Source of the DNA: a virus
Direction: 5' to 3' (one strand)
IMG/VR virus record: IMGVR_UViG_3300006927_000001
Span: 17,874 to 81,873 of that record
DNA: 64,000 nucleotides
Shown here in pieces: positions 1-59,525 of this stretch (its first letter is position 1; each line of letters opens with the position of its first letter). The notes under the pieces were generated by a model. That model worked only from the letters and a program-made list of their open reading frames with translations, was not told the origin of the DNA and did not search any database. The translations under genes and the position numbers were made by a program.

Positions 1-277
1 CCGTGTCTCCTAATAACAGTCCATCACTTTTGGATACAGGATCAACACCTTTGTTTGTTTCACCGAGTATAAGTCCCTCTGTAAGTGATACATGGTAGGT
101 GGCTTTTGAAGATATAGAATCGCCAAGAGTTATGCCTTCCGCTAAAGATACTGCAAAAGCTGTAATTTGATAAGTTACAGCATCACCTAAGACAAAACCT
201 TCACCCGAGTCAGAAGGAAGTCCAAGTCCTCCTGATCCAGCACCTCCTATTCGATGTCTACAACGAGCATCAACCAT
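1..277 (-). CDS. repeat-containing phage structural protein, 3' part beyond left edge
   Basis: A leftward reading frame opens with ATG at 277, overlaps the end of the preceding gene by 8 bases and stays open to the window edge. After a short Gly/Ser-rich N-terminus it shows degenerate repeats of about 20 residues with the core EG(F/I/L)xLG(D/E), seen four to five times. Such repeats are typical of beta-rich tail or fibre proteins of tailed phages, so a virion role is inferred. The C-terminus is missing, so length and exact function cannot be judged. Confidence 0.65.
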   Translation of the reverse strand, partial: MVDARCRHRIGGAGSGGLGLPSDSGEGFVLGDAVTYQITAFAVSLAEGITLGDSISSKATYHVSLTEGLILGETNKGVDPVSKSDGLLLGDT

Positions 278-851
278 TCTGTTTACCTAGGGCATCAATA
301 ATTCTTCCACTGATTCGATCAACAACATCTGGATCTTCAATTTCACAACTGATAGATTCAATTACCTCACTTGCAAAAGCCAAACCTGCTGTTCGATCCA
401 TCATTGATCCAGCACCCTTTTCAAGACGTTCAGCAGTTCTGACAAGTTTTTCACAAGAACTAACAAGTTGTTGAATTCTAGCAGACCACATTAATAATTG
501 TTGTGTGTCTTCACATTGATTCAAAATCTGTTCAATCATCAATCTTGTGACACCAATTTCACCACGAAGACTTTTTGCTTGCTCACTTTCAGCAAACTCA
601 TCCATACGTTCTTGCCAAATGCTCAAACGATAATCATGAGTTCTTTCTTTTCGTACAGTTGTTGCTTTCTTTTCACCTCCGTGCCTTGCACATGTATGTG
701 AATTTATATAATCCGTAGGATTTGCAACTTCCAATAGATGACGTTCTACACAAGCAGCCATTGAGAGATAAGGACATTGACCATGTTTCCCACCAGATTG
801 ACATCGACCAGGATCAGCGTCATGTTCTATCCGATGTAACTTTTTATCCAT
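270..851 (-). CDS. Cys-rich N-terminus plus helical domain, unknown function
   Basis: The N-terminal part has Cys/His spacing (GRCQ..GQCPYL..AACVERHL..HTCARHGG) suggesting one zinc site; the remainder is charged and alpha-helical. ATG at 851 is preceded by GAGG at 5 bases. A TTG at 923 with AAGGA upstream would extend it by 24 residues, but that extension lies over three hairpins, so 851 is preferred. The layout resembles small phage proteins found near packaging genes, which would fit a packaging role, but nothing seen here proves it. Confidence 0.7.
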   Translation of the reverse strand: MDKKLHRIEHDADPGRCQSGGKHGQCPYLSMAACVERHLLEVANPTDYINSHTCARHGGEKKATTVRKERTHDYRLSIWQERMDEFAESEQAKSLRGEIGVTRLMIEQILNQCEDTQQLLMWSARIQQLVSSCEKLVRTAERLEKGAGSMMDRTAGLAFASEVIESISCEIEDPDVVDRISGRIIDALGKQNG

Positions 852-854
852 AAA

Positions 855-921
855 ATCCTCGGGGTCTTGACCCGCATCGCAACCCCAAGGATCGAGACCC
901 GAAGGTCCACGCCCAAAGGGC
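855..921 (-). promoter_or_regulatory. three consecutive RNA hairpins upstream of the 851 start
   Basis: On the leftward transcript three stem-loops follow each other: GCCC-TTT-GGGC (911-921), GACC-TTCG-GGTC with a cUUCGg tetraloop (896-907), and a 12-bp stem ATCCTTGGGGTT/GACCCCGAGGAT (855-866 with 881-892). They lie between the stop at 927 and the ATG at 851. They could attenuate transcription, be a processing site, or control translation of the next gene. Confidence 0.45.
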
Positions 922-926
922 AAAAA

Positions 927-1181: not shown

Positions 1182-1978
1182 AAAGTACCTCCTTTAGGAC
1201 CTGCGGGTTGACTGGGATCATCAGGTGCTAAAGTCTCGGCACAACACCAAGCTCCCCCTGTTGACCAATTAGATTCCGAATCATAAAGACGCCCATTGTC
1301 GCCTCTAGACTTAGAGTACGAATCACAATAACGGACAAGAAAGCGGCGACCATCATGTAAGAGGTCTTCACCGCAAATAGAATGCCCTTTACGTCCATAA
1401 CAGATCGGCATGTCATGAAGTAAAGCAGAAGCAAATTCTTCCTTTGAGCCAATAGAAAACCACCCATTTTTAGCAACACGCAAATGACGGGCTGTGTCCC
1501 TCCACCCTTGTGGCATATTTCGACTAAAGGGTGTATTCTCCTGGTAAGTATGCTTAAAATTAGCATGTTTGTCGCTAAAAAGAATACCTACTTCTGTGAG
1601 ATGTTCCATTGCACCCCAGCACGTTGATCCTGAATTACGGCTTCTGGCTACTTGATTATAGCCAGACATAGGAGAAGGAATGAACATGTATTTTTTGCCG
1701 TATTGAACAGCATACCGAATCGCATAGCAGCGACATGCGGCATTATACACGCAACTTGATTCAGGATTCTGGTTATAAACGTAATCAAAAAAGTTTTGAA
1801 GAGCATAGTTCTTTGATTTACGATCATCAATACGATCTTTCCACTCATTTCGCGGAATGACAAAAGAAGACGGAAAAGATACTCCAAAAGATTCTTCAGA
1901 GTGAATTAACCCACCCAGTTCCTGTCCTGGTTTCCATTCATCTCTAACAATATCAATTAATGCGGGATTTATGTTCAT
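1178..1978 (-). CDS. papain-fold (C1A-like) cysteine peptidase homologue
   Basis: 266 residues. The order of motifs fits the papain fold: SSCVYNAACR (candidate nucleophile Cys near residue 75), GSTCWGAMEHLTEVGI, a segment resembling the 'sveelk.Al..gp' strand (GSKEEFASALLHDMPI), KGHSICGEDL (candidate His) and YCDSYSKSRGDNGRLY in place of the usual NSWG..WG.nG. The Asn of the catalytic triad is not obvious, so it may be inactive or diverged. It sits between an exported protein and a small membrane protein, compatible with a virion-associated or cell-surface role. No other clear lysin is visible nearby. Confidence 0.6.
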   Translation of the reverse strand: MNINPALIDIVRDEWKPGQELGGLIHSEESFGVSFPSSFVIPRNEWKDRIDDRKSKNYALQNFFDYVYNQNPESSCVYNAACRCYAIRYAVQYGKKYMFIPSPMSGYNQVARSRNSGSTCWGAMEHLTEVGILFSDKHANFKHTYQENTPFSRNMPQGWRDTARHLRVAKNGWFSIGSKEEFASALLHDMPICYGRKGHSICGEDLLHDGRRFLVRYCDSYSKSRGDNGRLYDSESNWSTGGAWCCAETLAPDDPSQPAGPKGGTL

Positions 1979-2595
1979 TTAGTAATTGCCTCAACTAATG
2001 CTTCAGTTGTTTCAGGTAAAGGCATGATTTTCAGAACAGTATTATCATTTAACAAAACGAGAATTCGAGAATAGCCAACTCCAGATGCGGCGTCGAGGGC
2101 TGGCTTTAGGTCTAAAGGGACTGTACCTGTTCCTGTTTTTGGAGTTGAATCAGTTATTCTAAGTTCAATTGACCCGATTTCAGATCGTGCTGCAGGAACA
2201 TGTGGTGAAACAGGACTATCAGCAATCACAACAGCTTTGGTTACTTTAAATTCAGGTGGAGGAGGTCTTGCTCCGAGAACCGTTAAATTATAATATTTCT
2301 TTTCTTTTCTGCCTTCATCTCCCATTTTAAATATTAACAGCATCTGAACTTCGTATTCTCCTGGTGCTGCCCAGATAGCGAATGTATTTCCATTATCATA
2401 TTCACGTCCACGTGCTCTCGGTCCCTGTGAAATGTTAATAATTTGCCAATCAATCATGAACAACGTGAATCCGTCAGGTTCTTCATATTGTACAGTAAAT
2501 TCAATTGGTTCATGTTGTTCAAACGTGAAAATTTGTGGAGTTTCTGCTTTCACTGTATCTAAGAAAATAAGCGTCAAAAATAACAAAGTAGACAT
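1975..2595 (-). CDS. exported protein with PKD/Ig-like domain
   Basis: 206 residues. A signal peptide is clear (MSTLLFLTLIFLDTVKA, likely cleaved before ETP). Residues about 20-110 look like a beta-sandwich: FTVQYEEPDGFTLF, NTFAIWAAPGEYEVQMLLIF and YNLTVLG match the pattern of PKD/Ig-like domains. The C-terminal part is a second, unassigned domain. It is first in the leftward operon 2595 to 1 and has a promoter-like box about 110 bases upstream. Function unknown; probably exported by the host Sec system. Confidence 0.75.
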   Translation of the reverse strand: MSTLLFLTLIFLDTVKAETPQIFTFEQHEPIEFTVQYEEPDGFTLFMIDWQIINISQGPRARGREYDNGNTFAIWAAPGEYEVQMLLIFKMGDEGRKEKKYYNLTVLGARPPPPEFKVTKAVVIADSPVSPHVPAARSEIGSIELRITDSTPKTGTGTVPLDLKPALDAASGVGYSRILVLLNDNTVLKIMPLPETTEALVEAITK

Positions 2596-2658
2596 AATTT
2601 TTTCCTGTGCGGGTTGTTTGAGCGTGTCAATGATTCAAGATCGTTGAATTTTAAATCC

Positions 2659-2687
2659 TTGCAGCGATCTTGTCGAGATCGCTGCAA
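2659..2687. repeat. palindrome copy 1 (TTGCAGCGATCT family)
   Basis: 29-bp inverted repeat with arms TTGCAGCGATCT.. / ..AGATCGCTGCAA and one mismatch next to the centre. It is one of four copies at 2659, 2735, 6795 and 7051, all outside genes. Could be protein-binding sites, bidirectional terminators or recombination sites. Confidence 0.85.
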
Positions 2688-2701
2688 ACTGAGAATTATC
2701 C

Positions 2702-2714
2702 CGTATATTATACG
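2702..2714 (-). promoter_or_regulatory. promoter-like box CGTATAATATACG
   Basis: On the minus strand this reads CGTATAATATACG and shares the 11-mer CGTATAATATA with both arms of the divergent promoter at 46451-46513. It lies between palindromes 1 and 2 and about 110 bases upstream of the start at 2595, so it could drive the leftward operon. It is nearly self-complementary, so direction is not certain. Confidence 0.45.
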
Positions 2715-2734
2715 TGATTCGACCCAAAATAATT

Positions 2735-2767
2735 CCTTGCAGCGATCTCGACAAGATCGCTGCAAGG
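2735..2767. repeat. palindrome copy 2
   Basis: 33-bp inverted repeat CCTTGCAGCGATCT..AGATCGCTGCAAGG with one mismatched pair beside the centre; identical in sequence to copy 4 at 7051-7083. Confidence 0.85.
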
Positions 2768-2903
2768 ATGCTGATTTAGGTAATTTCAGACTTCAAATCA
2801 AACCCAGCAACCCAGAATGAAGTTTTAAAGTTGAGAAAGTCTACGAAAACAGCCCACTTCTCATTTGAGGAGTGGGACTTGTTGAAAGATTCAAGATCAA
2901 AGG

Positions 2904-3063
2904 TTCATGGGCGGTAGTTTGATAAGAATGTAATTGAAATAAGGATCATGGGCGGTGGGTTGATTTAAATGTAATTGAAATAAGAATCATGGGCGGTGGT
3001 TTGATAAGAATGTAATTAAAATAATAAATAAGAATCATGGGCGGTGGTTTGATTTAAATGTAC
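2904..3063. repeat. four 41-48 bp direct repeats (iteron-like)
   Basis: Four units begin with TCATGGGCGGT at about 2905, 2946, 2987 and 3035, followed by G(T/G)TTGAT and (AAG or TTTA)AATGTAATTGAAATAAG. Spacing is 41, 41 and 48 bases; the fourth is cut short. A fifth core, inverted, is at 6618-6628. Regular spacing of about four helical turns suggests cooperative protein binding, as in replication-initiator iterons or partition sites. Confidence 0.8.
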
Positions 3064-3113
3064 AGCCTTAGAAAAAATTGACCGTATCAGACCCTACAGA
3101 GCGACAGGGGTAC

Positions 3114-6794: not shown

Positions 6795-6829
6795 TCCTTG
6801 CAGCGATCTCGTCGAGATCGCTGCAAGGA
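6795..6829. repeat. palindrome copy 3, perfect
   Basis: 35-bp perfect inverted repeat TCCTTGCAGCGATCTCG-T-CGAGATCGCTGCAAGGA, the most complete of the four copies. No T-tract follows on either strand. Confidence 0.9.
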
Positions 6830-7050: not shown

Positions 7051-7083
7051 CCTTGCAGCGATCTCGACAAGATCGCTGCAAGG
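7051..7083. repeat. palindrome copy 4
   Basis: 33-bp copy identical to copy 2 (2735-2767), with one mismatched pair by the centre. Confidence 0.9.
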
Positions 7084-15237: not shown

Positions 15238-16067
15238 ACTTCCAGTTCTCCAAAATCAATTGCGGGATGATACTTATACAGAGACAAGTACGCTGTCCAG
15301 GATTCAAAATCCTGATCATCTTTAAACTCTACGTGAACCATTGGTAACTTGTGAGGTGAACGTGAGAGTTGTGTAACAATACCCTCATGTTGGTTCTCAT
15401 AAATGTGAGCATCAGCAAAATTAGCAGACAATCCACCGACACTCAATCCTGACCACTTAGCCAAGAGATGCGTTAACAAAGCATATGATGCAATGTTCGT
15501 TGGAACACCAACAGGAAAGTCACATGAACGTTGATGCCAATGCATATGGATTTTACCACCATATACAACCACGTTCCATAAGACGTGACAAGGTGGTAAT
15601 GCCATACGCTCATGCTCATCTGGTCGCCAGGCTGATACAACCATACGACGATCATCGCCACCCCTTTTCAAAGCAGACAATACGTGATCAAGTTGCCCAT
15701 GAGCATTCCATTGAGCACCGTAGACTGGTCCAAGATCACCTTTTCGGTAGATTTGTTTGGCTTCAGGATCAAAGATTCCGCGATCATTGAGATTGTTTGC
15801 CCATTCTTTCCAAAATGTACAACCATTTTCCTCAAACTCAGCTTGAGTCATCCTCCCTTCAATAAATGAACGAAGTTCACCAGCCATCCCTTTCCACCAC
15901 ATTTGTCGTGTGGTAATGAACGGGAATCCATCAGCCAGGTCATGATCAAACCTGAGATGCGGAAGACCAATCGTTTTGTTCTTTGTTTGACCAGATTCTA
16001 TACGTGTTGGACGTTTTTCCACACCACGTGTATAAATACGACCCAAAAGATCTAAGTAAGCTTTCAT
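15234..16067 (-). CDS. thyA: thymidylate synthase (ThyA type)
   Basis: 277 residues, close to the normal 264 of bacterial ThyA. Converts dUMP to dTMP with methylene-tetrahydrofolate. The catalytic Cys is in ALPPCHVLW near residue 157; QRSCDFPVGVPTNIASYALL and FADAHIYENQ are the usual dUMP/folate-site signatures. Works with the dCTP deaminase at 52471 and the ribonucleotide reductase at 32079 in dTTP supply. Start and stop overlap neighbours by 4 bases. Confidence 0.97.
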   Translation of the reverse strand: MKAYLDLLGRIYTRGVEKRPTRIESGQTKNKTIGLPHLRFDHDLADGFPFITTRQMWWKGMAGELRSFIEGRMTQAEFEENGCTFWKEWANNLNDRGIFDPEAKQIYRKGDLGPVYGAQWNAHGQLDHVLSALKRGGDDRRMVVSAWRPDEHERMALPPCHVLWNVVVYGGKIHMHWHQRSCDFPVGVPTNIASYALLTHLLAKWSGLSVGGLSANFADAHIYENQHEGIVTQLSRSPHKLPMVHVEFKDDQDFESWTAYLSLYKYHPAIDFGELEV

Positions 16068-16561
16068 TTTAGTACCTCATTGACCCAAGCAGGTGAACGA
16101 CAAATCTTGTGAGCCAATTCATCGATTGTCATTTGTGGATTACGAGACAATATCTTTACTAAATGTTTCTTGTATTCTTCAGGTTTCGTTTCAATACGTG
16201 GTTGACTTGGAATTAGAACTATCGATTCAGTATCATCTAATTTTACGATATGAATTACAATAGTTTTCCAACCCAGCAACTTTGCCACATGTACCCGAGC
16301 CAAACCATCAATTAAGACGGCATTTGGACCCTGAGCACGACACAAGATTGGATTTTGCTGTCCAACTGACTCCATATTATCTTTCAGTTCTTTTGAACCA
16401 TATTGACAAGATCGAATACTCTCATAAACGATCTTGTCAATTGAAATCGTTTGAAGACCAGGTTTTAATTCACTATCATCTTCCGGGGGTGGAAGTTTGC
16501 TGACAGGTGCAATTAAGCAAATGCCACATGTCTGCAGAAATGATCTGCGTTCAACTTTCAT
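16064..16561 (-). CDS. short ParB-like protein with twin-arginine signal
   Basis: 165 residues from ATG 16561 (GGAA upstream). Residues 1-30 (VERRSFLQTCGICLIAPVSK) look exactly like a Tat signal: RRxFL followed by a moderately hydrophobic stretch. Residues 40-165 match the ParB/sulfiredoxin-like N-domain (NPILCRAQ..VLIDGLARVHVAKLLGW) and end just after KILSRNPQMTIDELAHKICRSPAWV, the same HTH segment as in the larger ParB at 45347. It is thus a shortened paralogue joined to a Tat-type leader. The leader could also be a plain internal helix if the start lies further upstream. Confidence 0.7.
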   Translation of the reverse strand: MKVERRSFLQTCGICLIAPVSKLPPPEDDSELKPGLQTISIDKIVYESIRSCQYGSKELKDNMESVGQQNPILCRAQGPNAVLIDGLARVHVAKLLGWKTIVIHIVKLDDTESIVLIPSQPRIETKPEEYKKHLVKILSRNPQMTIDELAHKICRSPAWVNEVLK

Positions 16562-16769
16562 AATATTTCCATGTTCGCCACGCATCCAAGGATGCTTGAT
16601 TCCAAAAAATTCTTGCACGTTCAAGTGAGGATGTACCAGCACATTCCCATAAATTCAATCCACCACATATTCCTACAAATTCACGGAAAAAACGTTTTCG
16701 TATTTCGCGATATTTTTGGTTGGTTCGTTTTGTCTGTTTGTTTGGGGTATCCCCTCCTGTCCAAGCAAC
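16551..16769 (-). CDS. possible small basic Cys-containing protein
   Basis: 72 residues from ATG 16769, preceded by GAGG within the acidic gene. Basic N-terminus, then FREFVGICGGLNLWECAGTSSLERAR. It fills the gap between the acidic gene and the ParB-like gene and overlaps both, which fits local gene packing, but the 89-base overlap with the acidic gene makes it less certain. Confidence 0.45.
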   Translation of the reverse strand, partial: VAWTGGDTPNKQTKRTNQKYREIRKRFFREFVGICGGLNLWECAGTSSLERARIFWNQASLDAWRTWKYYES

Positions 16770-22209: not shown

Positions 22210-22830
22210 TTATTCCTCATAAAAAGTGCCAATTTTAGCCAAAATCTTGTTACGACGAACACTTGTAAAACGTTCTGAAACTTTAAGTTCAGCTGCAGTT
22301 TCTTTATTCGTGTAACCAAGTAACAAAAAATGAAGAATTCTTTTTTCAACCTCATCCTCAACAGAAAGATCACAAATCTCTCTTACTTCAAGAGGTAAAT
22401 TTGGAACTTTTAAATCTGTTACATCATGTTTCCACCTTTCTGACGCTAGATCAGTAAAACAAACTTCACGATGTTGATCCATGGTTTTTCCTTTAACAGG
22501 ATTTCCACCGACCAATTCTGTACGCATTGCCCAATTTAATCTTACACGAATGTATGCAGTTAAATTGTTATCCCTCGCAATTGAAGGAAATCGAATAACA
22601 GCATCCACAAGTGTTATAAAACCAACTTCAACAAAATCGTCTTCTTTTCTTGGGCAAAATCCCGTAAACAGAGATGCAGTTGAGACTGAAAGACTCATAT
22701 GTCCAAGAATCAAACGATCTCTTTGTGTTTCATCTCCTTCTAAATAAGCATCAACGGATTCAAGATATGTGTTTTCATCTAGCCGCGGCGGAATTGTAAA
22801 AGGAAGTTTGATCGAGTATCCTCTAGCCAT
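22210..22830 (-). CDS. sigma-70-family RNA polymerase sigma factor
   Basis: 206 residues from ATG 22830 (GGAG five bases upstream). Region 2-like: QRDRLILGHMSLSVSTASLF..FVEVGFITLVDAVIRF..NLTAYIRVRLNWAMRTEL. Region 4-like HTH: EVEKRILHFLLLGYTNKETAAELKVSER. Region 3 is short and the rest absent, as in small alternative or phage sigma factors. It would direct host polymerase to phage promoters, for example the CGTATAATATA boxes. Adjacent csrA is translated just before it. Confidence 0.8.
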   Translation of the reverse strand: MARGYSIKLPFTIPPRLDENTYLESVDAYLEGDETQRDRLILGHMSLSVSTASLFTGFCPRKEDDFVEVGFITLVDAVIRFPSIARDNNLTAYIRVRLNWAMRTELVGGNPVKGKTMDQHREVCFTDLASERWKHDVTDLKVPNLPLEVREICDLSVEDEVEKRILHFLLLGYTNKETAAELKVSERFTSVRRNKILAKIGTFYEE

Positions 22831-22832
22831 TG

Positions 22833-23003
22833 TCACTCCATTGATTTAGGTTCCTTTTTAATTAACTCAGATCGTAATATTTTAACGTTAGAGGGAGCTT
22901 CAATACCTAAACGAATTTTATCACCAGCGATTCTGACTACAGTGATTACAATATTACCATCAATCACAATAGTTTCTTGTTCCTTGCGTGACAATACTAA
23001 CAT
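22833..23003 (-). CDS. csrA: CsrA/RsmA carbon storage regulator
   Basis: 56 residues matching the whole CsrA fold: MLVLSRKEQETIVI, ITVVRIAGDKIRLGIEAP and VKILRSEL, with the RNA-contacting Leu4 and Arg44 both present. CsrA dimers bind GGA-containing hairpins near ribosome sites and block or alter translation of host mRNAs. It overlaps the upstream stop (TAATG) and precedes the sigma gene by 2 bases. A phage copy could retune host metabolism or regulate phage genes. Confidence 0.92.
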   Translation of the reverse strand: MLVLSRKEQETIVIDGNIVITVVRIAGDKIRLGIEAPSNVKILRSELIKKEPKSME

Positions 23004-45346: not shown

Positions 45347-46384
45347 CTACATGTTCACAATGTTGGCAGCATCTTTCGCAGCAGCATCTTGCTTGGCATC
45401 TTCTCGCTCTTTCTTCTTGCGTTCAACCTCGTCCTTTTTCTTCTGTTTACGGACGATATCCGCCTCACGTTGAGCTTGCTGCGAAGCCTCATCGAAATTG
45501 AGAGTCCAAGCTAATGCCAAAGATACGATATCACTCGGACTTGTGAGTCCACCATCTGTGACCAAAGCCAAGATGGCACCGCTACCTTCAGCCACAGCTT
45601 CAAACTCTTCCTTCAACACCGTAATCTTGCGAAGATGCATTGCGGGCTGAAATTCAGCCGGTGCTGCATCTTTGCCAGCTTTCTTTGCGTCTCGAATTTC
45701 CTTGACGCGTGCCTTCATACGTGGCACAAACGTTTGAGGCTGTTCCGTTTGAGCAGCATCCACGTGCTCTGCCTGTTCTTCTTCGGGAAGCTTGGATAGA
45801 GCATAAGCGTTGGTAAGATGGATCTTGCCAGCATCGACAAGTTCTTGAATTCCATCCTGCAACTTGTTGAGTGAAAGTCTTTGTTCCACCCACGTCTTGG
45901 ATTGACACACTTTCTGTGCCAATTGTGTCACAGTCATGAAAGGATTCCGCGAAAGAATGCGGAGAAGGTGGCGACTGTACTCGGCGGGTCGTGTAACAAC
46001 ACGTGTTGCATTGGTGATGATCTGAGCTTCAAGCAACTCACCATCATCCATTGAAACGACGAATGCAGGAATTTCAAATCGACCTGCATCCGTTGATGCC
46101 GTGAATCGTTGCAAACCATCAATCAGTCCATACTTGGTAACACCAAGGCTATCGAGTTCACGAACCAAGATCGGTTGCAAAACACCACGTTCTCGAATGG
46201 AATTGACCAACAACTGATACTCCTCACGTTGACGATCAACGTCACGTAAAGAGATCTCAGATTTCTCGATCAATCCCAAAGGAATGATCTTCGTTACCGT
46301 TCCGGCCTTTTCCTGTGCAGCTGCGATCTCTTCTTTTTCGATCGCATCCACGGACCGTTCTACAGTAGCAGCATCAGTTGACAT
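45347..46384 (-). CDS. ParB-like protein, large copy
   Basis: 345 residues. LINRE-type core: IIPLGLIEKSEISLRDVDRQREEY, GVLQPILVREL and YGLIDGLQRFTAS form the ParB N-domain; YSRHLLRILSRNPFMTVTQLAQKVCQSKTWVEQRL is an HTH, matched by the short Tat-signal paralogue at 16064. C-terminal region is a long basic/acidic coiled coil (RKQKKKDEVERKKKERED). First gene left of the divergent promoter, so probably expressed early and abundantly. G+C-rich. Confidence 0.85.
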   Translation of the reverse strand: MSTDAATVERSVDAIEKEEIAAAQEKAGTVTKIIPLGLIEKSEISLRDVDRQREEYQLLVNSIRERGVLQPILVRELDSLGVTKYGLIDGLQRFTASTDAGRFEIPAFVVSMDDGELLEAQIITNATRVVTRPAEYSRHLLRILSRNPFMTVTQLAQKVCQSKTWVEQRLSLNKLQDGIQELVDAGKIHLTNAYALSKLPEEEQAEHVDAAQTEQPQTFVPRMKARVKEIRDAKKAGKDAAPAEFQPAMHLRKITVLKEEFEAVAEGSGAILALVTDGGLTSPSDIVSLALAWTLNFDEASQQAQREADIVRKQKKKDEVERKKKEREDAKQDAAAKDAANIVNM

Positions 46385-46450: not shown

Positions 46451-46466
46451 TACACTATATTATACG
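46451..46466 (-). promoter_or_regulatory. leftward promoter box CGTATAATATAGTGTA
   Basis: Left arm of a 16-bp perfect inverted repeat. On the minus strand it reads CGTATAATATAGTGTA, with a TATAAT-type -10 box. Located 67 bases upstream of the ParB start at 46384. Confidence 0.6.
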
Positions 46467-46497
46467 AGTTTTAGCTGTAATAATTACGCAAAATAAA

Positions 46498-46513
46498 CGT
46501 ATAATATAGTGTA
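46498..46513 (+). promoter_or_regulatory. rightward promoter box CGTATAATATAGTGTA
   Basis: Right arm of the same inverted repeat, pointing towards the primase-helicase gene at 46656. The 31 bases between the arms would hold both -35 regions. Same CGTATAATATA core as at 2702. Confidence 0.6.
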
Positions 46514-46655
46514 AGTTTGTAAATTGATTTGATTTAGAATTTACAAACTAACTTACTTATGAGGGTTAGATTATTGATCAGAAAAAATATAACTACCCTA
46601 TAAAGTGAGCTATTAGACTTGCCCCCTATTTGTAAGTAATTTTGTAGGAACAAAA

Positions 46656-49352
46656 ATGACCGTATCAAGAATCGCATCTATTTTAAGGATGTTAAATCAA
46701 AACACCCACAACGATCTAGCATCTCTTTATAATAGTGGAATGGAATGTCAGGTCAACGTTGCACAAGATCTTGGTGAAGCTATTCAAGGTAAATTTGAAG
46801 GCAAATCCTGGACAGGATATACAGACGGTGATCAAACTTGGAAACCATTTCGCATCCCTTATAATGCGAATTCAACGCCCGAGTATGATGTTACAACACC
46901 TATGAATTTTGATCTTGCTGAACATGCTGAAGCTATCGGGATGACGGGTTGGGACTGGCAAAATTGTGTTAGCCGTTGGGTCGCTTTTGATTTCGATGCA
47001 ATTGTAGGTCACTCAGATAAGCATAGTTCTAAACTAAGTGTTGAGGATCTTGTACGAGTGAAACAAGCAGCCTGTGATATACCGTGGGTGACTGTGCGTC
47101 ATTCAACAGGTGGACGTGGGTTACACCTGTATGTGTTTCTTGATCCTGTATCTACAGCCAACCATACAGAACACCAAGCTTTGGCACGTTCTATTTTGTC
47201 CCTGATGTCAGGAATTGCACGTTATGATTTCGCATCCAAGGTTGACATTTGTGGTGGCAATATGTGGATTTGGCATCGTAAGATGCAAAAAAGTCCACAA
47301 GCTTTAGACCTCATCAAACAAGGTAAAATACTTAAAGAAATACCTGCAAATTGGCGTGACCATATAGCTGTTATGAAGGGTAATAGAAAGAAGATCAAAC
47401 AACGAATACCAGCATCAGAAGAATTACCAGAATTACATGAAAAATTTGATCAAACAGCTGGTCAACAAAATTTAATTGCTTTGGATCTTATACACAAAAA
47501 GTTAATTGATTATCTTCATCAAAATTGTTCAAGACAATGGTGGTGGGATTCTGATCATCATATGCTTGTCACACATACGTTGGATCTGAAATCAGCACAT
47601 GAGGCTCTTGCCTTCAAAGGTATTTACGAAACAAGTTCACCTGGTAATGATGCTGAACAAAACTGTTTCGCTTTTCCAATGCGACAAGGTGCTTGGTCAA
47701 TCAGACGTTATTCATTAGGTGCAAGTGAACATGCATCATGGGAACAAGATGGTCGTGGTTGGACTAAGTGTTACTTGAATTATGAACCCAATCTTAAGAT
47801 TGCTGCTCTTGCTCATGAAGGACTTGAAAGACCTTCAGGTGGATATGCTTTCAATTCACTTGCTGACGCAAAAGAAGCTGGATTAGCCGTCGGTTCTGAA
47901 ATCAAAACACCAGCAGGCATGGACGGTCGTACTGCGACCATCAAAATGCATAAAGATCGATCTCGAATCATTGTTGAAATTCCAGCAGAACATCATGATC
48001 AACCAGGAGACATGCTCAGTTGGTTACGTGAAAAGAATAAGTGGGTAAGGATCTTGAATGCAAATCTCAGTAACGAAGGTGAAGTTGAAACAGAAAGTGT
48101 TGATGATTTCTGCCGACATATTGTTACACGTGACGGCGGAGATGCAGGTTGGATGATTCGAGGTGATGAATGGTGGAGACAAGAACCTTTGACACATGTT
48201 AAACTGGCTCTCAAGACACACGGATACAATGCACCAGAAGTTGATAAAATTGTTGGTGGAAATGTTTGTAAACCATGGCTCTTGACCGTTGCACCCTTTC
48301 AATCAGAATATCCAGGCGATAGACAATGGAACAAGAACGCTCCACAACTAAAACATGTGCCTAGCAATAATGATACCCTCTCTTTTCCTCATTGGCAAAT
48401 GATCTTAGATCATGTAGGCAAGGGTTTAGACGTTGCTGTAATAGAGTCAAATTGGTGCACAAGCAATAATATAGTCTCAGGTTCAGACTATCTTAAATGT
48501 TGGGTTGCTTCTTTGTTCCAATATCCACTTCAACCTCTTCCGTATCTATTTATCTTCTCTGATAAACAGAATACAGGAAAATCCATCCTTCATGAGTCTT
48601 TGAATTTGCTTTTCAGTCCCGGATACAGGCGAGCAGACCATTCGCTTGGTGGTTCAATTTTCAATGGTGAACTTGAAGGTGCAATTCTTTGTGTAATAGA
48701 AGAAACCAATCTTGCTACAAATAAAACAGCTAATGCAAAGATAAAAGATTGGGTAACTTCACCTATGTTACCTATACACAAAAAAATGTTGACACCTTAT
48801 GAGGTTATAAATACAACTCATTGGATACATTGTTCTAATTTCAAAACAGACTGTCCTATATGGCCAGGTGATACACGTATCACAATGATAAATGTACCAG
48901 AACTTCCTGTTAATCCAATACCAAAACCAGTCTTTATGGAAGTTTTGGCCAAAGAAGCACCAGATTTTCTAGCTGCATTGCTATCACTAGAAATACCAGC
49001 TTCAAACGATAGGTTAAGATTACCTGTTCTCAATACACAACAAAAACTTGAAGCAGCTAAGATCAATGAAAATTTAGTTGAAATTTTCTTACGTGAAGCC
49101 TGTCATGAAGCACCAGGTTACATGATCTCGTTGGCAAAATTTGCAGAAGCATACATTGCATGGTTAGACCCCAGCGAACGTATTGGTTTGACAAAACGTA
49201 AAATTAGTTCATCTATGCCTGATAGAATTCCTAAAGGACGAAACCCTTATAATGCAGCATGGTCCTGGGGTAACATATCTTTCAAAGTTCCTGATGAAAC
49301 TCGATCACCGTTAATTTGTTTTGAAGAAAAACTCGTAAGCAAGGAAATGTAA
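46656..49352 (+). CDS. primase-helicase (AEP-like primase plus SF3-type helicase)
   Basis: 898 residues; AGGAACAAAA precedes the ATG. N-terminal part: WVAFDFDAIVGHSD and VRHSTGGRGLHLYVFLD resemble the archaeo-eukaryotic primase metal and nucleotide sites. C-terminal part: FIFSDKQNTGKSILHESL is a Walker A of the D5/SF3 helicase type (DUF5906-like), and CVIEETNLATNKTANAKI Walker B. Unwinds and primes phage DNA. Opens the only rightward operon. Confidence 0.88.
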   Translation: MTVSRIASILRMLNQNTHNDLASLYNSGMECQVNVAQDLGEAIQGKFEGKSWTGYTDGDQTWKPFRIPYNANSTPEYDVTTPMNFDLAEHAEAIGMTGWDWQNCVSRWVAFDFDAIVGHSDKHSSKLSVEDLVRVKQAACDIPWVTVRHSTGGRGLHLYVFLDPVSTANHTEHQALARSILSLMSGIARYDFASKVDICGGNMWIWHRKMQKSPQALDLIKQGKILKEIPANWRDHIAVMKGNRKKIKQRIPASEELPELHEKFDQTAGQQNLIALDLIHKKLIDYLHQNCSRQWWWDSDHHMLVTHTLDLKSAHEALAFKGIYETSSPGNDAEQNCFAFPMRQGAWSIRRYSLGASEHASWEQDGRGWTKCYLNYEPNLKIAALAHEGLERPSGGYAFNSLADAKEAGLAVGSEIKTPAGMDGRTATIKMHKDRSRIIVEIPAEHHDQPGDMLSWLREKNKWVRILNANLSNEGEVETESVDDFCRHIVTRDGGDAGWMIRGDEWWRQEPLTHVKLALKTHGYNAPEVDKIVGGNVCKPWLLTVAPFQSEYPGDRQWNKNAPQLKHVPSNNDTLSFPHWQMILDHVGKGLDVAVIESNWCTSNNIVSGSDYLKCWVASLFQYPLQPLPYLFIFSDKQNTGKSILHESLNLLFSPGYRRADHSLGGSIFNGELEGAILCVIEETNLATNKTANAKIKDWVTSPMLPIHKKMLTPYEVINTTHWIHCSNFKTDCPIWPGDTRITMINVPELPVNPIPKPVFMEVLAKEAPDFLAALLSLEIPASNDRLRLPVLNTQQKLEAAKINENLVEIFLREACHEAPGYMISLAKFAEAYIAWLDPSERIGLTKRKISSSMPDRIPKGRNPYNAAWSWGNISFKVPDETRSPLICFEEKLVSKEM

Positions 49353-56504: not shown

Positions 56505-59500
56505 TTAACTTTCAGGACAATCACCAATTGTACCAGTAACAACTGATCCTGGTCCAAAACCACCAGCATTACCTTCTGTGATCTCAGCAGCTGTTGGAAA
56601 TTCATCACTTCCAAGTGCTGGCCAAAAGAATTTGTATTGATCCATCTCTCCTGCACGAATACCTGTATGTAACACGAATTCAACTAGATTAGATACTGAA
56701 TCAAAAACAGCTTCTTCTACAACACATTTCACATCTGCATTAGACACAAAAGTTGAACTAAGTTGTAGTAAAACAGTATCCAAAGTATCAACATTCAAAC
56801 GTGAATGGAAAACAGATACATGAACTTTTTTCCACGTATTTGAATATCGGATCAACCAAAAGGTTGCAGACTTTAAAACCAATTCTCTGTCTGTATAAAT
56901 ATGAAAAAATTCTTCACTTTGATGTGCACCATATTTTTTCACGTTATGACGTAAAATAACTTTGGGATCTTCTTCTCCTTGTTCTAATTCAAGATAATCA
57001 ATCTTGTATGTCGATGTAAGAACTGTTACCAGTTCTTCTGTTCTTGTGTATGCAATTTTCAAAGAGTCTAATTCAAAATCTCCTTCATCTAATGTTGTAT
57101 CTTGTGAAGGTTCCTCAGATAAGTATTTAAGGAACATTTCATCATTTATTAACAAAACACCTAAACGTGCTTCCCAAGCTGTACGACGTATTTCTTCTAG
57201 TGCATCTGGTCGTTCAAAAGTACAAAAATCCACAGGATAAAGTTCTTCTCCGCCATTTTGTAACTTTGCTTTGATCGCTGCAAAATTAGAAGCATTAACC
57301 GTTTTGTCAGTATAGGTCTCAACAATATATTGAATGTAATCAACAACACTTGGACCAACAGGTGAAATCAATGAAACATAGACAACTTCTTCCCAATTTT
57401 CACCAGGAATCAAAACTAACGAAGTTGGAAATGTTAAAGATGTTACATCAATTGAACCTAAGTTTGCACTTTCATTTTTGATATAATATCTTGAAGGTAC
57501 AGGTGCCAAAAATCGAAGACCATCTTCATTTGTTCGATAAGCACTCACAGACTTAACTGTGGATGGGAGAATATTTGCAATATAAATGTCACAATCTGGA
57601 CCGTCTTCTTCGATTCTAGATCCAGAATCAGCTTTCCAGAACATACTTTCAGGTAATTCCTCATAAGGAATACTATATCGAGTTAACCAATTTTCAGGGA
57701 TGAGACCAGAAACTTCAACAACTTCTCCAACATCTGAACCTATTATTGTATAAATATCACGAAGTCCGGGTGCTACAGCAAAAACTGTATCTCCCAGAAT
57801 ATCATTTGGAAGCAAATAGACCAATTTTGTTAAAGTTGTCAATTCATCTTTACTGACAGGACCAGTTGCTCGTAAAATTGACAAAAGCATTTCTGCTTCA
57901 GGTCTATTCCAGATATTTGGGTCATAGTCACCAGTGAAGAAACCTTCAGGGTACCAATAACCAAATGGCCCAGGATACAATGGTGTATCAACAATTTCCC
58001 GTACAATGTTAGCCAAATTCATTCCACGTGGGAAACCACCTGAACCACCTTTGTCCCATTCAACCAGTTCAAAATAAATTTTCAAACCAACTTGTTTTGT
58101 GACTTTCAGTATGTGACGATCTTTTGATCCATCTGAGTCATCAGTACCACGTTTCTTTACCAAGATCCATGTGTCTTCTAGCTGAGGAATAGATTCAGGA
58201 TCACCATTAACATCAATAGTTGCTTCTAACCAAAATAGGTTAGCACCATCGATGTCCTCAATACCTGAACAAGGATCATCATCTGGTTTCCAAGCATCTA
58301 CTGCAATGTCTTTATCATAAGCTAATGGTCCTGCTACATAACACATTACATCATCTGTATCAAATTGAACACGAAATCTAACCTTGTGTATTATGACATC
58401 AACATCTGCACCTGCACCAAAGATTTCTGCTCCATCTTTAGTTTTGACACATGTTTTCAACAACTGAGATTGTCTACAAATTTCTTTCCACACAGCTAAG
58501 TAATCTGCATGAATTTCACGCATTTTATTATACGTGTTAATTTGATTCTGAGCTGCTCTTTTCTTTTGCTCATATTCAAATTCAGCCAAACGACACATTT
58601 CTTGAAGAACTTTTTTACGTATAAAAATTGCATTTGCAGCAGCTGCCATAATTTGCAAAGCATTTTGTATTTGACGAATTTGTGTACGAATACCACGTGC
58701 TACTGCACCCGCATTCGCAAATCGTTGTGCTACTCTACGAACACGTGTTAAAAGTGCAAGTAAAGCTAAAACTGTTGGACGTATTCTATCTTCATTTATG
58801 ATTGCTTTAACATACTCATTCAAGATCCAAGACACATCAGGTGCAATTGCATTAGCACCACGCATAACGAGTATCCAAAAATGAAGCATGAAACTTTCAC
58901 GTCCATAATCAGCTTCTAAGTCTCTTAGACGTTGATACAATGTAATGTCAACACGTCCAAAAGCTTCAAGAAGAAATGCAACTTTTTTCTGTGAAACTTT
59001 CTTTGCAGGTACATGTTTCACACGTCCAATAGCTAATGGCCAAGATTGACCTTCCAAATCAGATGCAACAAAATCAAGTTGACCTTCTTCAGGTGAAAAA
59101 CCTATTTGATAAGATTCAACTTGAGATAAAATAGTGAAATCAATCGAACGAGCTTTTTCTTTCCATTCAAAAGGTGTACTAATTTGACCTTTGAACACAA
59201 CAAACTTGTCAGCATCTACTAGACCGCCATACCATTGGTAGACAGTGGCAAGTTTCTTATGTATGTCTGTTTGATCCAGTATCCTTTTAATCTCACCACT
59301 TGTATCATCAAGTGATATAGGAACTTGGGCTGTTTGTGCTTTCTGAATTGTTAAAGCAGACTCAAGATTACCAACACTAAGAATTTTACCATCAATTCCT
59401 AGAATCGCTTTATCCGCATACTGCGATACACTTCCCGCAACCCATTCTATTTCAACAATAGTAACAGGTTCAGTTGCGTACTGTTTTGCAATCTCTGTTA

Positions 59501-59525
59501 ATGCATTAGTTGTTAATGTTTTCAT
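56505..59525 (-). CDS. large tail protein (baseplate hub or tail-tip-like)
   Basis: 1006 residues. Beta-rich N-terminus (residues 1-200), a helical middle (about 215-370) likely forming a long coiled coil, and beta-rich remainder. Size and position two genes downstream of the repeat protein fit a central tail-tip or baseplate component of a tailed phage. No enzymatic motif recognised. Confidence 0.7.
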   Translation of the reverse strand: MKTLTTNALTEIAKQYATEPVTIVEIEWVAGSVSQYADKAILGIDGKILSVGNLESALTIQKAQTAQVPISLDDTSGEIKRILDQTDIHKKLATVYQWYGGLVDADKFVVFKGQISTPFEWKEKARSIDFTILSQVESYQIGFSPEEGQLDFVASDLEGQSWPLAIGRVKHVPAKKVSQKKVAFLLEAFGRVDITLYQRLRDLEADYGRESFMLHFWILVMRGANAIAPDVSWILNEYVKAIINEDRIRPTVLALLALLTRVRRVAQRFANAGAVARGIRTQIRQIQNALQIMAAAANAIFIRKKVLQEMCRLAEFEYEQKKRAAQNQINTYNKMREIHADYLAVWKEICRQSQLLKTCVKTKDGAEIFGAGADVDVIIHKVRFRVQFDTDDVMCYVAGPLAYDKDIAVDAWKPDDDPCSGIEDIDGANLFWLEATIDVNGDPESIPQLEDTWILVKKRGTDDSDGSKDRHILKVTKQVGLKIYFELVEWDKGGSGGFPRGMNLANIVREIVDTPLYPGPFGYWYPEGFFTGDYDPNIWNRPEAEMLLSILRATGPVSKDELTTLTKLVYLLPNDILGDTVFAVAPGLRDIYTIIGSDVGEVVEVSGLIPENWLTRYSIPYEELPESMFWKADSGSRIEEDGPDCDIYIANILPSTVKSVSAYRTNEDGLRFLAPVPSRYYIKNESANLGSIDVTSLTFPTSLVLIPGENWEEVVYVSLISPVGPSVVDYIQYIVETYTDKTVNASNFAAIKAKLQNGGEELYPVDFCTFERPDALEEIRRTAWEARLGVLLINDEMFLKYLSEEPSQDTTLDEGDFELDSLKIAYTRTEELVTVLTSTYKIDYLELEQGEEDPKVILRHNVKKYGAHQSEEFFHIYTDRELVLKSATFWLIRYSNTWKKVHVSVFHSRLNVDTLDTVLLQLSSTFVSNADVKCVVEEAVFDSVSNLVEFVLHTGIRAGEMDQYKFFWPALGSDEFPTAAEITEGNAGGFGPGSVVTGTIGDCPES

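What the first reader, a model, noticed from the sequence alone, without database searches (positions are those of the whole stretch)
46451..46513. Mirror-image divergent promoters sharing a box with 2702-2714
Seen: the same 16-mer CGTATAATATAGTGTA on both strands, 31 bases apart, firing left to ParB and right to the primase-helicase. The 11-mer CGTATAATATA recurs upstream of the exported-protein operon at 2702. Inference: a dedicated phage promoter class, maybe read by the sigma at 22210, with shared control of both operons.
Basis: partly seen in the sequence, partly recalled or inferred. Interest (0 to 1): 0.6.

Follow-up and report, generated by a model that had tools for sequence, protein, structure and literature searches.

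The report
Phage sigma promoters, two mirrored
The mirror-image sequence is two back-to-back copies of a phage's own promoter, a third copy starts its packaging and capsid operon, and related phages keep the three positions while changing the promoter's letters in step with their own sigma factor.

Summary
In detail: CGTATAATATAGTGTA lies on both strands at 46451-46466 (-) and 46498-46513 (+), inside a 63-bp imperfect palindrome between ParB and the primase-helicase. Most relatives (all uncultivated phages; three hits in Planctomycetota MAGs) have a long palindrome in that gap, with other letters. It is two outward-facing copies of a directional unit of about 35-40 bp. A single, non-palindromic third copy heads the packaging/capsid operon. 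G019, where ParB and primase are no longer divergent, has no palindrome but exactly three single copies, before ParB, primase and the packaging-operon gene. The unit has sigma-promoter geometry: fairly constant -35-like GGAAA/GTAAA, variable -10. The protein at 22210-22836 is a sigma-70-family factor present in nearly all long relatives. Across 16 genomes, box letters track sigma divergence beyond primase and ParB divergence (partial Mantel r 0.49, p 0.0001), through sigma region 2 (reads -10), not region 4. Closest precedent: sigma-dependent promoters of phages phiEco32 and 7-11.

The parts
46451..46466 (-). ParB-ward promoter box CGTATAATATAGTGTA (-10 region TATAAT 46464-46459), heading the leftward replication operon
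   Evidence: sequence; exact pair; paired arm in relatives
46498..46513 (+). primase-ward promoter box CGTATAATATAGTGTA (-10 region TATAAT 46500-46505), heading the rightward operon
   Evidence: sequence; exact pair
46477..46487 (.). central palindrome GTAATAATTAC, holding the -35-like element of both promoters (GTAATA plus strand, GTAATT minus strand)
   Evidence: sequence; position matches the -35-like GGAAA/GTAAA element of relatives
46451..46513 (.). whole 63-bp imperfect palindrome = two outward promoter units back to back
2699..2733 (-). third, single copy of the unit: GAATTA -35-like, CGTATAATATA at 2714-2704; heads the exported-protein/packaging operon
   Evidence: exact 11-mer; best non-self match of the two-arm matrix in the record; orthologous position
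2734..2768 (-). terminator-like hairpin that would end the leftward ParB operon just before the third box
   Evidence: 16-bp stem followed by ATTATTTT
45347..46384 (-). ParB-like protein (ParB_N + HTH_ParB), first gene of the leftward unit
46656..49352 (+). primase-helicase (DUF5906, phrog_1156), first gene of the rightward unit
22210..22836 (-). sigma-70-family factor (regions 2 and 4), candidate reader of the boxes; lies in the leftward unit
   Evidence: profile hits solved sigma factors, best E 4e-24; homologs in relatives; model and fold matches; covariation
1975..2595 (-). exported protein, first gene after the third box
   Evidence: ORF; N-terminus reads as a signal peptide (by eye)
270..923 (-). 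Cys-rich protein family (terminase-small-subunit-like by position), fourth gene of the unit; in the Planctomycete-phage clade it is the first gene after the third box
   Evidence: orthogroup 19; terminase large subunit, portal, scaffold and major head protein lie downstream on the same strand in L072

Best explanation
The sequence is a pair of back-to-back promoters of one phage-specific class. Each is a directional unit of about 35-40 bp: a -35-like element (GTAAT here, GGAAA/GTAAA in relatives), a 16-18 nt spacer, a -10 element (CGTATAAT here) and a start near the AG of TATAG. Three copies head what look like the three main transcription units: the ParB-led leftward unit (pol A, helicase, RNR, sigma), the primase-led rightward unit, and the leftward packaging/structural unit at 2704-2714. 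The phage sigma factor (22210-22836), carried by the host RNA polymerase core, is the likely reader. Because it is encoded in the ParB-led unit, it would amplify its own expression and switch on all three units together. The palindrome follows from two identical promoters facing outwards. Shown: positions, directionality, conserved trio, sigma-family membership, covariation. Inferred: transcription starts, sigma binding, timing.
For: The ParB-primase gap holds an inverted repeat above all 60 shuffles and all control windows in 44 of 49 loci, near-duplicates included; two of the five failures were over-called ParB ORFs. The letters differ between genomes, but within a genome the two arms match (0.86 against 0.57 between genomes). 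A single directional third copy with the same inner spacing stands before the Cys-rich gene, or the operon holding it, in G028, G021, G020, G016, G026, G015, G017, G011, G022 and the window. G019, without the palindrome, has exactly three single copies before the same three genes. The 22210 family is sigma-70 and near-universal in long relatives. Partial Mantel for box versus sigma given primase and ParB: r 0.49, p 0.0001; region 2 0.49, region 4 -0.02. Sigma ranks first of 17 families.
Against: No RNA data. The window's own third site is weak by itself: 9.1 against a reversed-genome maximum of 9.9, although it is the best non-self match with the directional matrix. G017 has the boxes, but no sigma was found in its 61 kb. 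G013 has the sigma but no recognised box trio. Genomes with 94% identical boxes can have sigma region 2 only about 66% identical, so sigma divergence is not all specificity change. Partial Mantel tests are liberal with phylogenetic structure.
Confidence: 0.8

Rival explanations
1. The units are operators of a DNA-binding regulator (ParB-like or another phage protein) that represses or activates the three operons together; host sigma provides the promoter.
For: ParB-like proteins can bind palindromes and autoregulate; the box lies next to the ParB gene; two ParB-like genes are present.
Against: L068 has an identical ParB HTH region while its intergenic letters differ. ParB distance does not explain box distance (partial r -0.26; ParB2 -0.11). 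The unit is an asymmetric two-part element with sigma spacing, and single copies are not palindromic.
Confidence: 0.1
2. The palindrome is a replication origin or DNA hairpin (single-strand initiation site) for the primase-helicase, and symmetry itself is selected.
For: Long nested inverted repeats beside a primase-helicase gene, the top inverted repeat of several genomes, with arms changing together.
Against: The same sequence recurs as a single non-palindromic copy before a distant operon. G019 keeps three single copies and no palindrome. In G018 the palindrome is separated from the primase gene.
Confidence: 0.04
3. The boxes are promoters of a phage-encoded single-subunit RNA polymerase of T7 type (letters specific to each phage, ending TATAGG).
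For: Phage-specific letters and a conserved AGG at the presumed start.
Against: No PF00940 match in 24 genomes, though the tool's controls did not ring either, so a divergent enzyme is not excluded. A sigma-70 factor is present and covaries with the boxes. A conserved -35-like element is present.
Confidence: 0.03
4. Ordinary host sigma-70 promoters that happen to be similar.
For: TATAAT is present in both window boxes.
Against: No TTGACA-type -35 at the right-hand box; site counts equal shuffles. Relatives' -10 letters are far from TATAAT, although all are presumed to infect Planctomycetota. Letters track the phage sigma.
Confidence: 0.03

Closest known systems
Salmonella phage 7-11, late promoters GTAAtg-(16)-aCTA read by its sigma gp47 (PMC8948821)
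   Same: A phage-encoded sigma-70-family factor on host core RNA polymerase, and a two-part promoter with a GTAA-type -35 and a spacer of about 16 nt, in few copies at the heads of operons
   Different: Unrelated uncultivated phages (Planctomycetota-linked); three copies in total, two in a mirrored pair; the -10 here is CGTATAAT in the window and varies by genome; nothing shown experimentally here
phiEco32 middle/late promoters read by gp36 (PMC8948821, PMC4331800)
   Same: Compared with 7-11, promoter positions are similar while the sequences differ with the sigma factor; replication and structural genes form separate clusters
   Different: There two phages with independently acquired sigma genes; here one orthologous sigma family diverging across many genomes, with covariation traced to region 2
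T4 late promoters / gp55
   Same: Phage sigma-family protein redirecting host RNA polymerase (own knowledge)
   Different: T4 uses a -10-only TATAAATA and DNA-loaded clamp activators; here a -35-like element is present
ECF sigma promoters (GGAAC, 16-17 nt, CGTC)
   Same: Fairly constant GGAA-type -35 and variable -10 (own knowledge)
   Different: The sigma here is closest by profile to SigF/SigA-type solved structures, not clearly ECF

Membership tests
Phage-encoded sigma factor with dedicated phage promoters (phiEco32 / 7-11 type) | phage encodes a sigma-70-family protein with regions 2 and 4 | tested here: met
   profile of 13 homologs matches solved sigma factors over positions 19-215, best E 4e-24; Sigma70_r4 in 4 and Sigma70_r2 in 1 of 13 members
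Phage-encoded sigma factor with dedicated phage promoters (phiEco32 / 7-11 type) | few copies of one two-part directional motif at operon heads | tested here: met
Phage-encoded sigma factor with dedicated phage promoters (phiEco32 / 7-11 type) | motif letters depend on the phage's own sigma | tested here: met
   partial Mantel and ranking of 17 families; correlational only
Phage-encoded sigma factor with dedicated phage promoters (phiEco32 / 7-11 type) | sigma holoenzyme starts transcription at the motif | not testable with these tools
   needs 5'-end mapping or in vitro transcription
T7-type single-subunit RNA polymerase promoters | phage encodes a PF00940 RNA polymerase | tested here: inconclusive
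   0 of 24 genomes match, but no control genome matched either
parS / ParB centromere or ParB operator | site letters follow the ParB DNA-binding domain | tested here: not met
   ParB distance does not explain box distance; HTH identical in L068 despite different letters
Hairpin origin / cruciform element | palindromic symmetry required wherever the element occurs | tested here: not met
   single copies before the packaging operon and in G019

The most novel reading that the evidence does not exclude
In this phage lineage the whole genome is run from three copies of one promoter whose -10 letters and sigma region 2 have diversified together, repeatedly, while the promoter positions stayed fixed, giving a natural series of some 15-20 mutually exclusive sigma/promoter pairs, possibly kept diverging by competition between co-infecting phages.
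Probability: 0.35. Interest if true: 0.72.

Novelty: new variant of a known kind. Interest (0 to 1): 0.58.

Why it matters
Phage sigma factors and their promoters are known from a handful of phages, and promoter letters usually cannot be predicted from the sigma sequence. Here one orthologous sigma family and its promoter trio are visible in many genomes, so specificity change in sigma region 2 can be read directly against the -10 letters and tested in vitro with matched and swapped pairs. It also gives a simple recipe for finding operon heads and timing in uncultivated Planctomycetota phages: look for the mirrored pair between ParB and primase, then for its single copy before the packaging genes. 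It supports a first-stage guess made from raw sequence.

Tried and rejected
Counting loose copies of the 11-mer in the window gives chance numbers, so a box-count argument alone fails. The hairpin/origin idea was attractive when only palindromes were seen and was dropped after single copies and G019. The T7-type polymerase idea came from the TATAGG ending; no PF00940 match (control caveat). ParB as reader: not supported. No relative of the primase in isolate phages or plasmids, so no annotated relative could be used. Paper searches for Planctomycete phages with these promoters found nothing relevant. The large unknown orthogroup 3 (window 56505-59525) had no family match and was not pursued.

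Full report
Observation. The 16-mer CGTATAATATAGTGTA is exactly present at 46498-46513 (+) and 46451-46466 (-). The whole 46451-46513 stretch is an imperfect palindrome with centre 46482 and an inner GTAATAATTAC. The exact 11-mer occurs a third time at 2704-2714 (-) and nowhere else in the 81,873-base virus record. Loose matches are at chance level.

Neighbours. Left of it is a ParB-like gene (45347-46384, minus), right of it a primase-helicase (46656-49352, plus). Relatives of the primase were found in 66 viral contigs and three Planctomycetota MAGs, and in no isolate phage or plasmid.

Layout in relatives. The divergent ParB/primase order is kept almost everywhere. The gap contains a strong inverted repeat in 44 of 49 loci (near-duplicates included), above 60 shuffles and all control windows. 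Two of the five failures came from over-called ParB ORFs and do carry the palindrome. In G001, G008, G011, G017, G021, G024 and G028 it is the best inverted repeat of the record. The letters differ from genome to genome. In L068, whose ParB is 88% identical, they differ although the ParB leader beside them stays largely identical.

The unit is directional. Searching each genome with its own two arms found a single further copy above a reversed-genome null in G028, G021, G020, G016, G026, G015 and G017 (G015 narrowly, 12.4 against 11.1). In each it lies 14-60 nt before one homologous Cys-rich gene of about 185 aa. In G011 and in the window the third copy is weaker and lies before an exported-protein gene, but the same Cys-rich gene is the fourth gene of that operon in both. 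A matrix including the -35 part makes the third site the best non-self match in all ten genomes tested, the window's record included. In the window, terminase large subunit, portal, scaffold and major head protein follow on the same strand, so this is the packaging/structural unit. A terminator-like hairpin stands just before the third box.

The test case G019. Here ParB and primase are not divergent and there is no palindrome, yet exactly three copies of GCCTATAGTATG with a shared upstream GTAAAA exist in 106 kb: before ParB, before primase and before the Cys-rich gene. The palindrome is therefore a consequence of two promoters back to back, not the functional element.

Promoter geometry. In 44 aligned units the conserved parts are GGAAA-type letters at -31 to -26, TTT at -16 to -14, and AGG at 0 to +2. 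The genome-specific letters lie at -13 to -5. This is the geometry of a sigma promoter with a fairly constant -35, a spacer of about 16 nt and a variable -10, starting near AGG. In the window the matching parts are GTAATT/GTAATA, CGTATAAT and AG. The assignment of -35, -10 and +1 is an inference.

The 22210-22836 protein belongs to a family found in nearly all long relatives, whose profile matches solved sigma factors over both regions 2 and 4. The predicted model matches sigma chains, with low global TM because of the low-confidence linker. Among 17 conserved families in 9 genomes, sigma distance best explains box distance after removing core-genome distance (partial r 0.63, next 0.44). In 16 genomes the partial Mantel given primase and ParB is 0.49 (p 0.0001). 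Primase given sigma is 0.10 and ParB -0.26. The signal is in region 2, which reads the -10, and not in region 4. These tests are correlational and liberal under shared ancestry.

Known kinds. Phage 7-11 late promoters, GTAAtg-(16)-aCTA, are read by a phage sigma factor, and its promoter positions resemble those of phiEco32 while the sequences do not (PMC8948821; see also PMC4331800). The present case works the same way and, on features tested here, belongs to that broad kind. New are the mirrored pair, the three-operon set conserved across a large uncultivated lineage, and the covariation with sigma region 2.

Limits. No transcript or binding data. Early expression of the sigma itself must come from something else, or from leakage. 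G013 and G017 are exceptions not explained.

Noticed in passing
window 2655-2687, 2737-2769, 6798-6826, 7053-7081: A hairpin TTGCAGCGATCTNGTCGAGATCGCTGCAA occurs four times; two copies flank the third promoter box as mutual inverted repeats, one in the position of a terminator and one in the 5' leader of the packaging operon.
   Followed up: partly
window 46511-46552: A 15-bp inverted repeat with GATTTGATT in its loop lies in the primase leader; AATCAAATC/GATTTGATT words recur in ParB and primase leaders of the closer relatives L003-L009 and L065.
   Followed up: no
window 38257-39225 and 16064-16642: A second ParB-like gene (ParB_N + HTH_ParB) and a shorter ORF of the same orthogroup.
   Followed up: no
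window 2900-3072: Four tandem copies of a 41-48 bp repeat (AAGGATCATGGGCGGTGG...) between the leftward unit and the third box.
   Followed up: no
L069 and L184 (G035 contig 1, 444 kb, Planctomycetota MAG): The MAG contig carries ParB, primase and the sigma within about 20 kb and perfect 19-bp arms TACAGTAAAGCGACAAATC / GATTTGTCGCTTTACTGTA, suggesting a provirus (or misbinned phage) and a Planctomycetota host.
   Followed up: partly
L185 (G033:28908-29555): The sigma homolog has one in-frame TGA, although the palindrome is intact in the same record.
   Followed up: no
G017 (L108-L111): Boxes occur four times, with an extra copy before the primase, yet no sigma homolog was found in its 61 kb.
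   Followed up: partly
window 56505-59525: A 1006-aa protein conserved in 21 of 23 genomes compared has no Pfam or PHROGs match.
   Followed up: no
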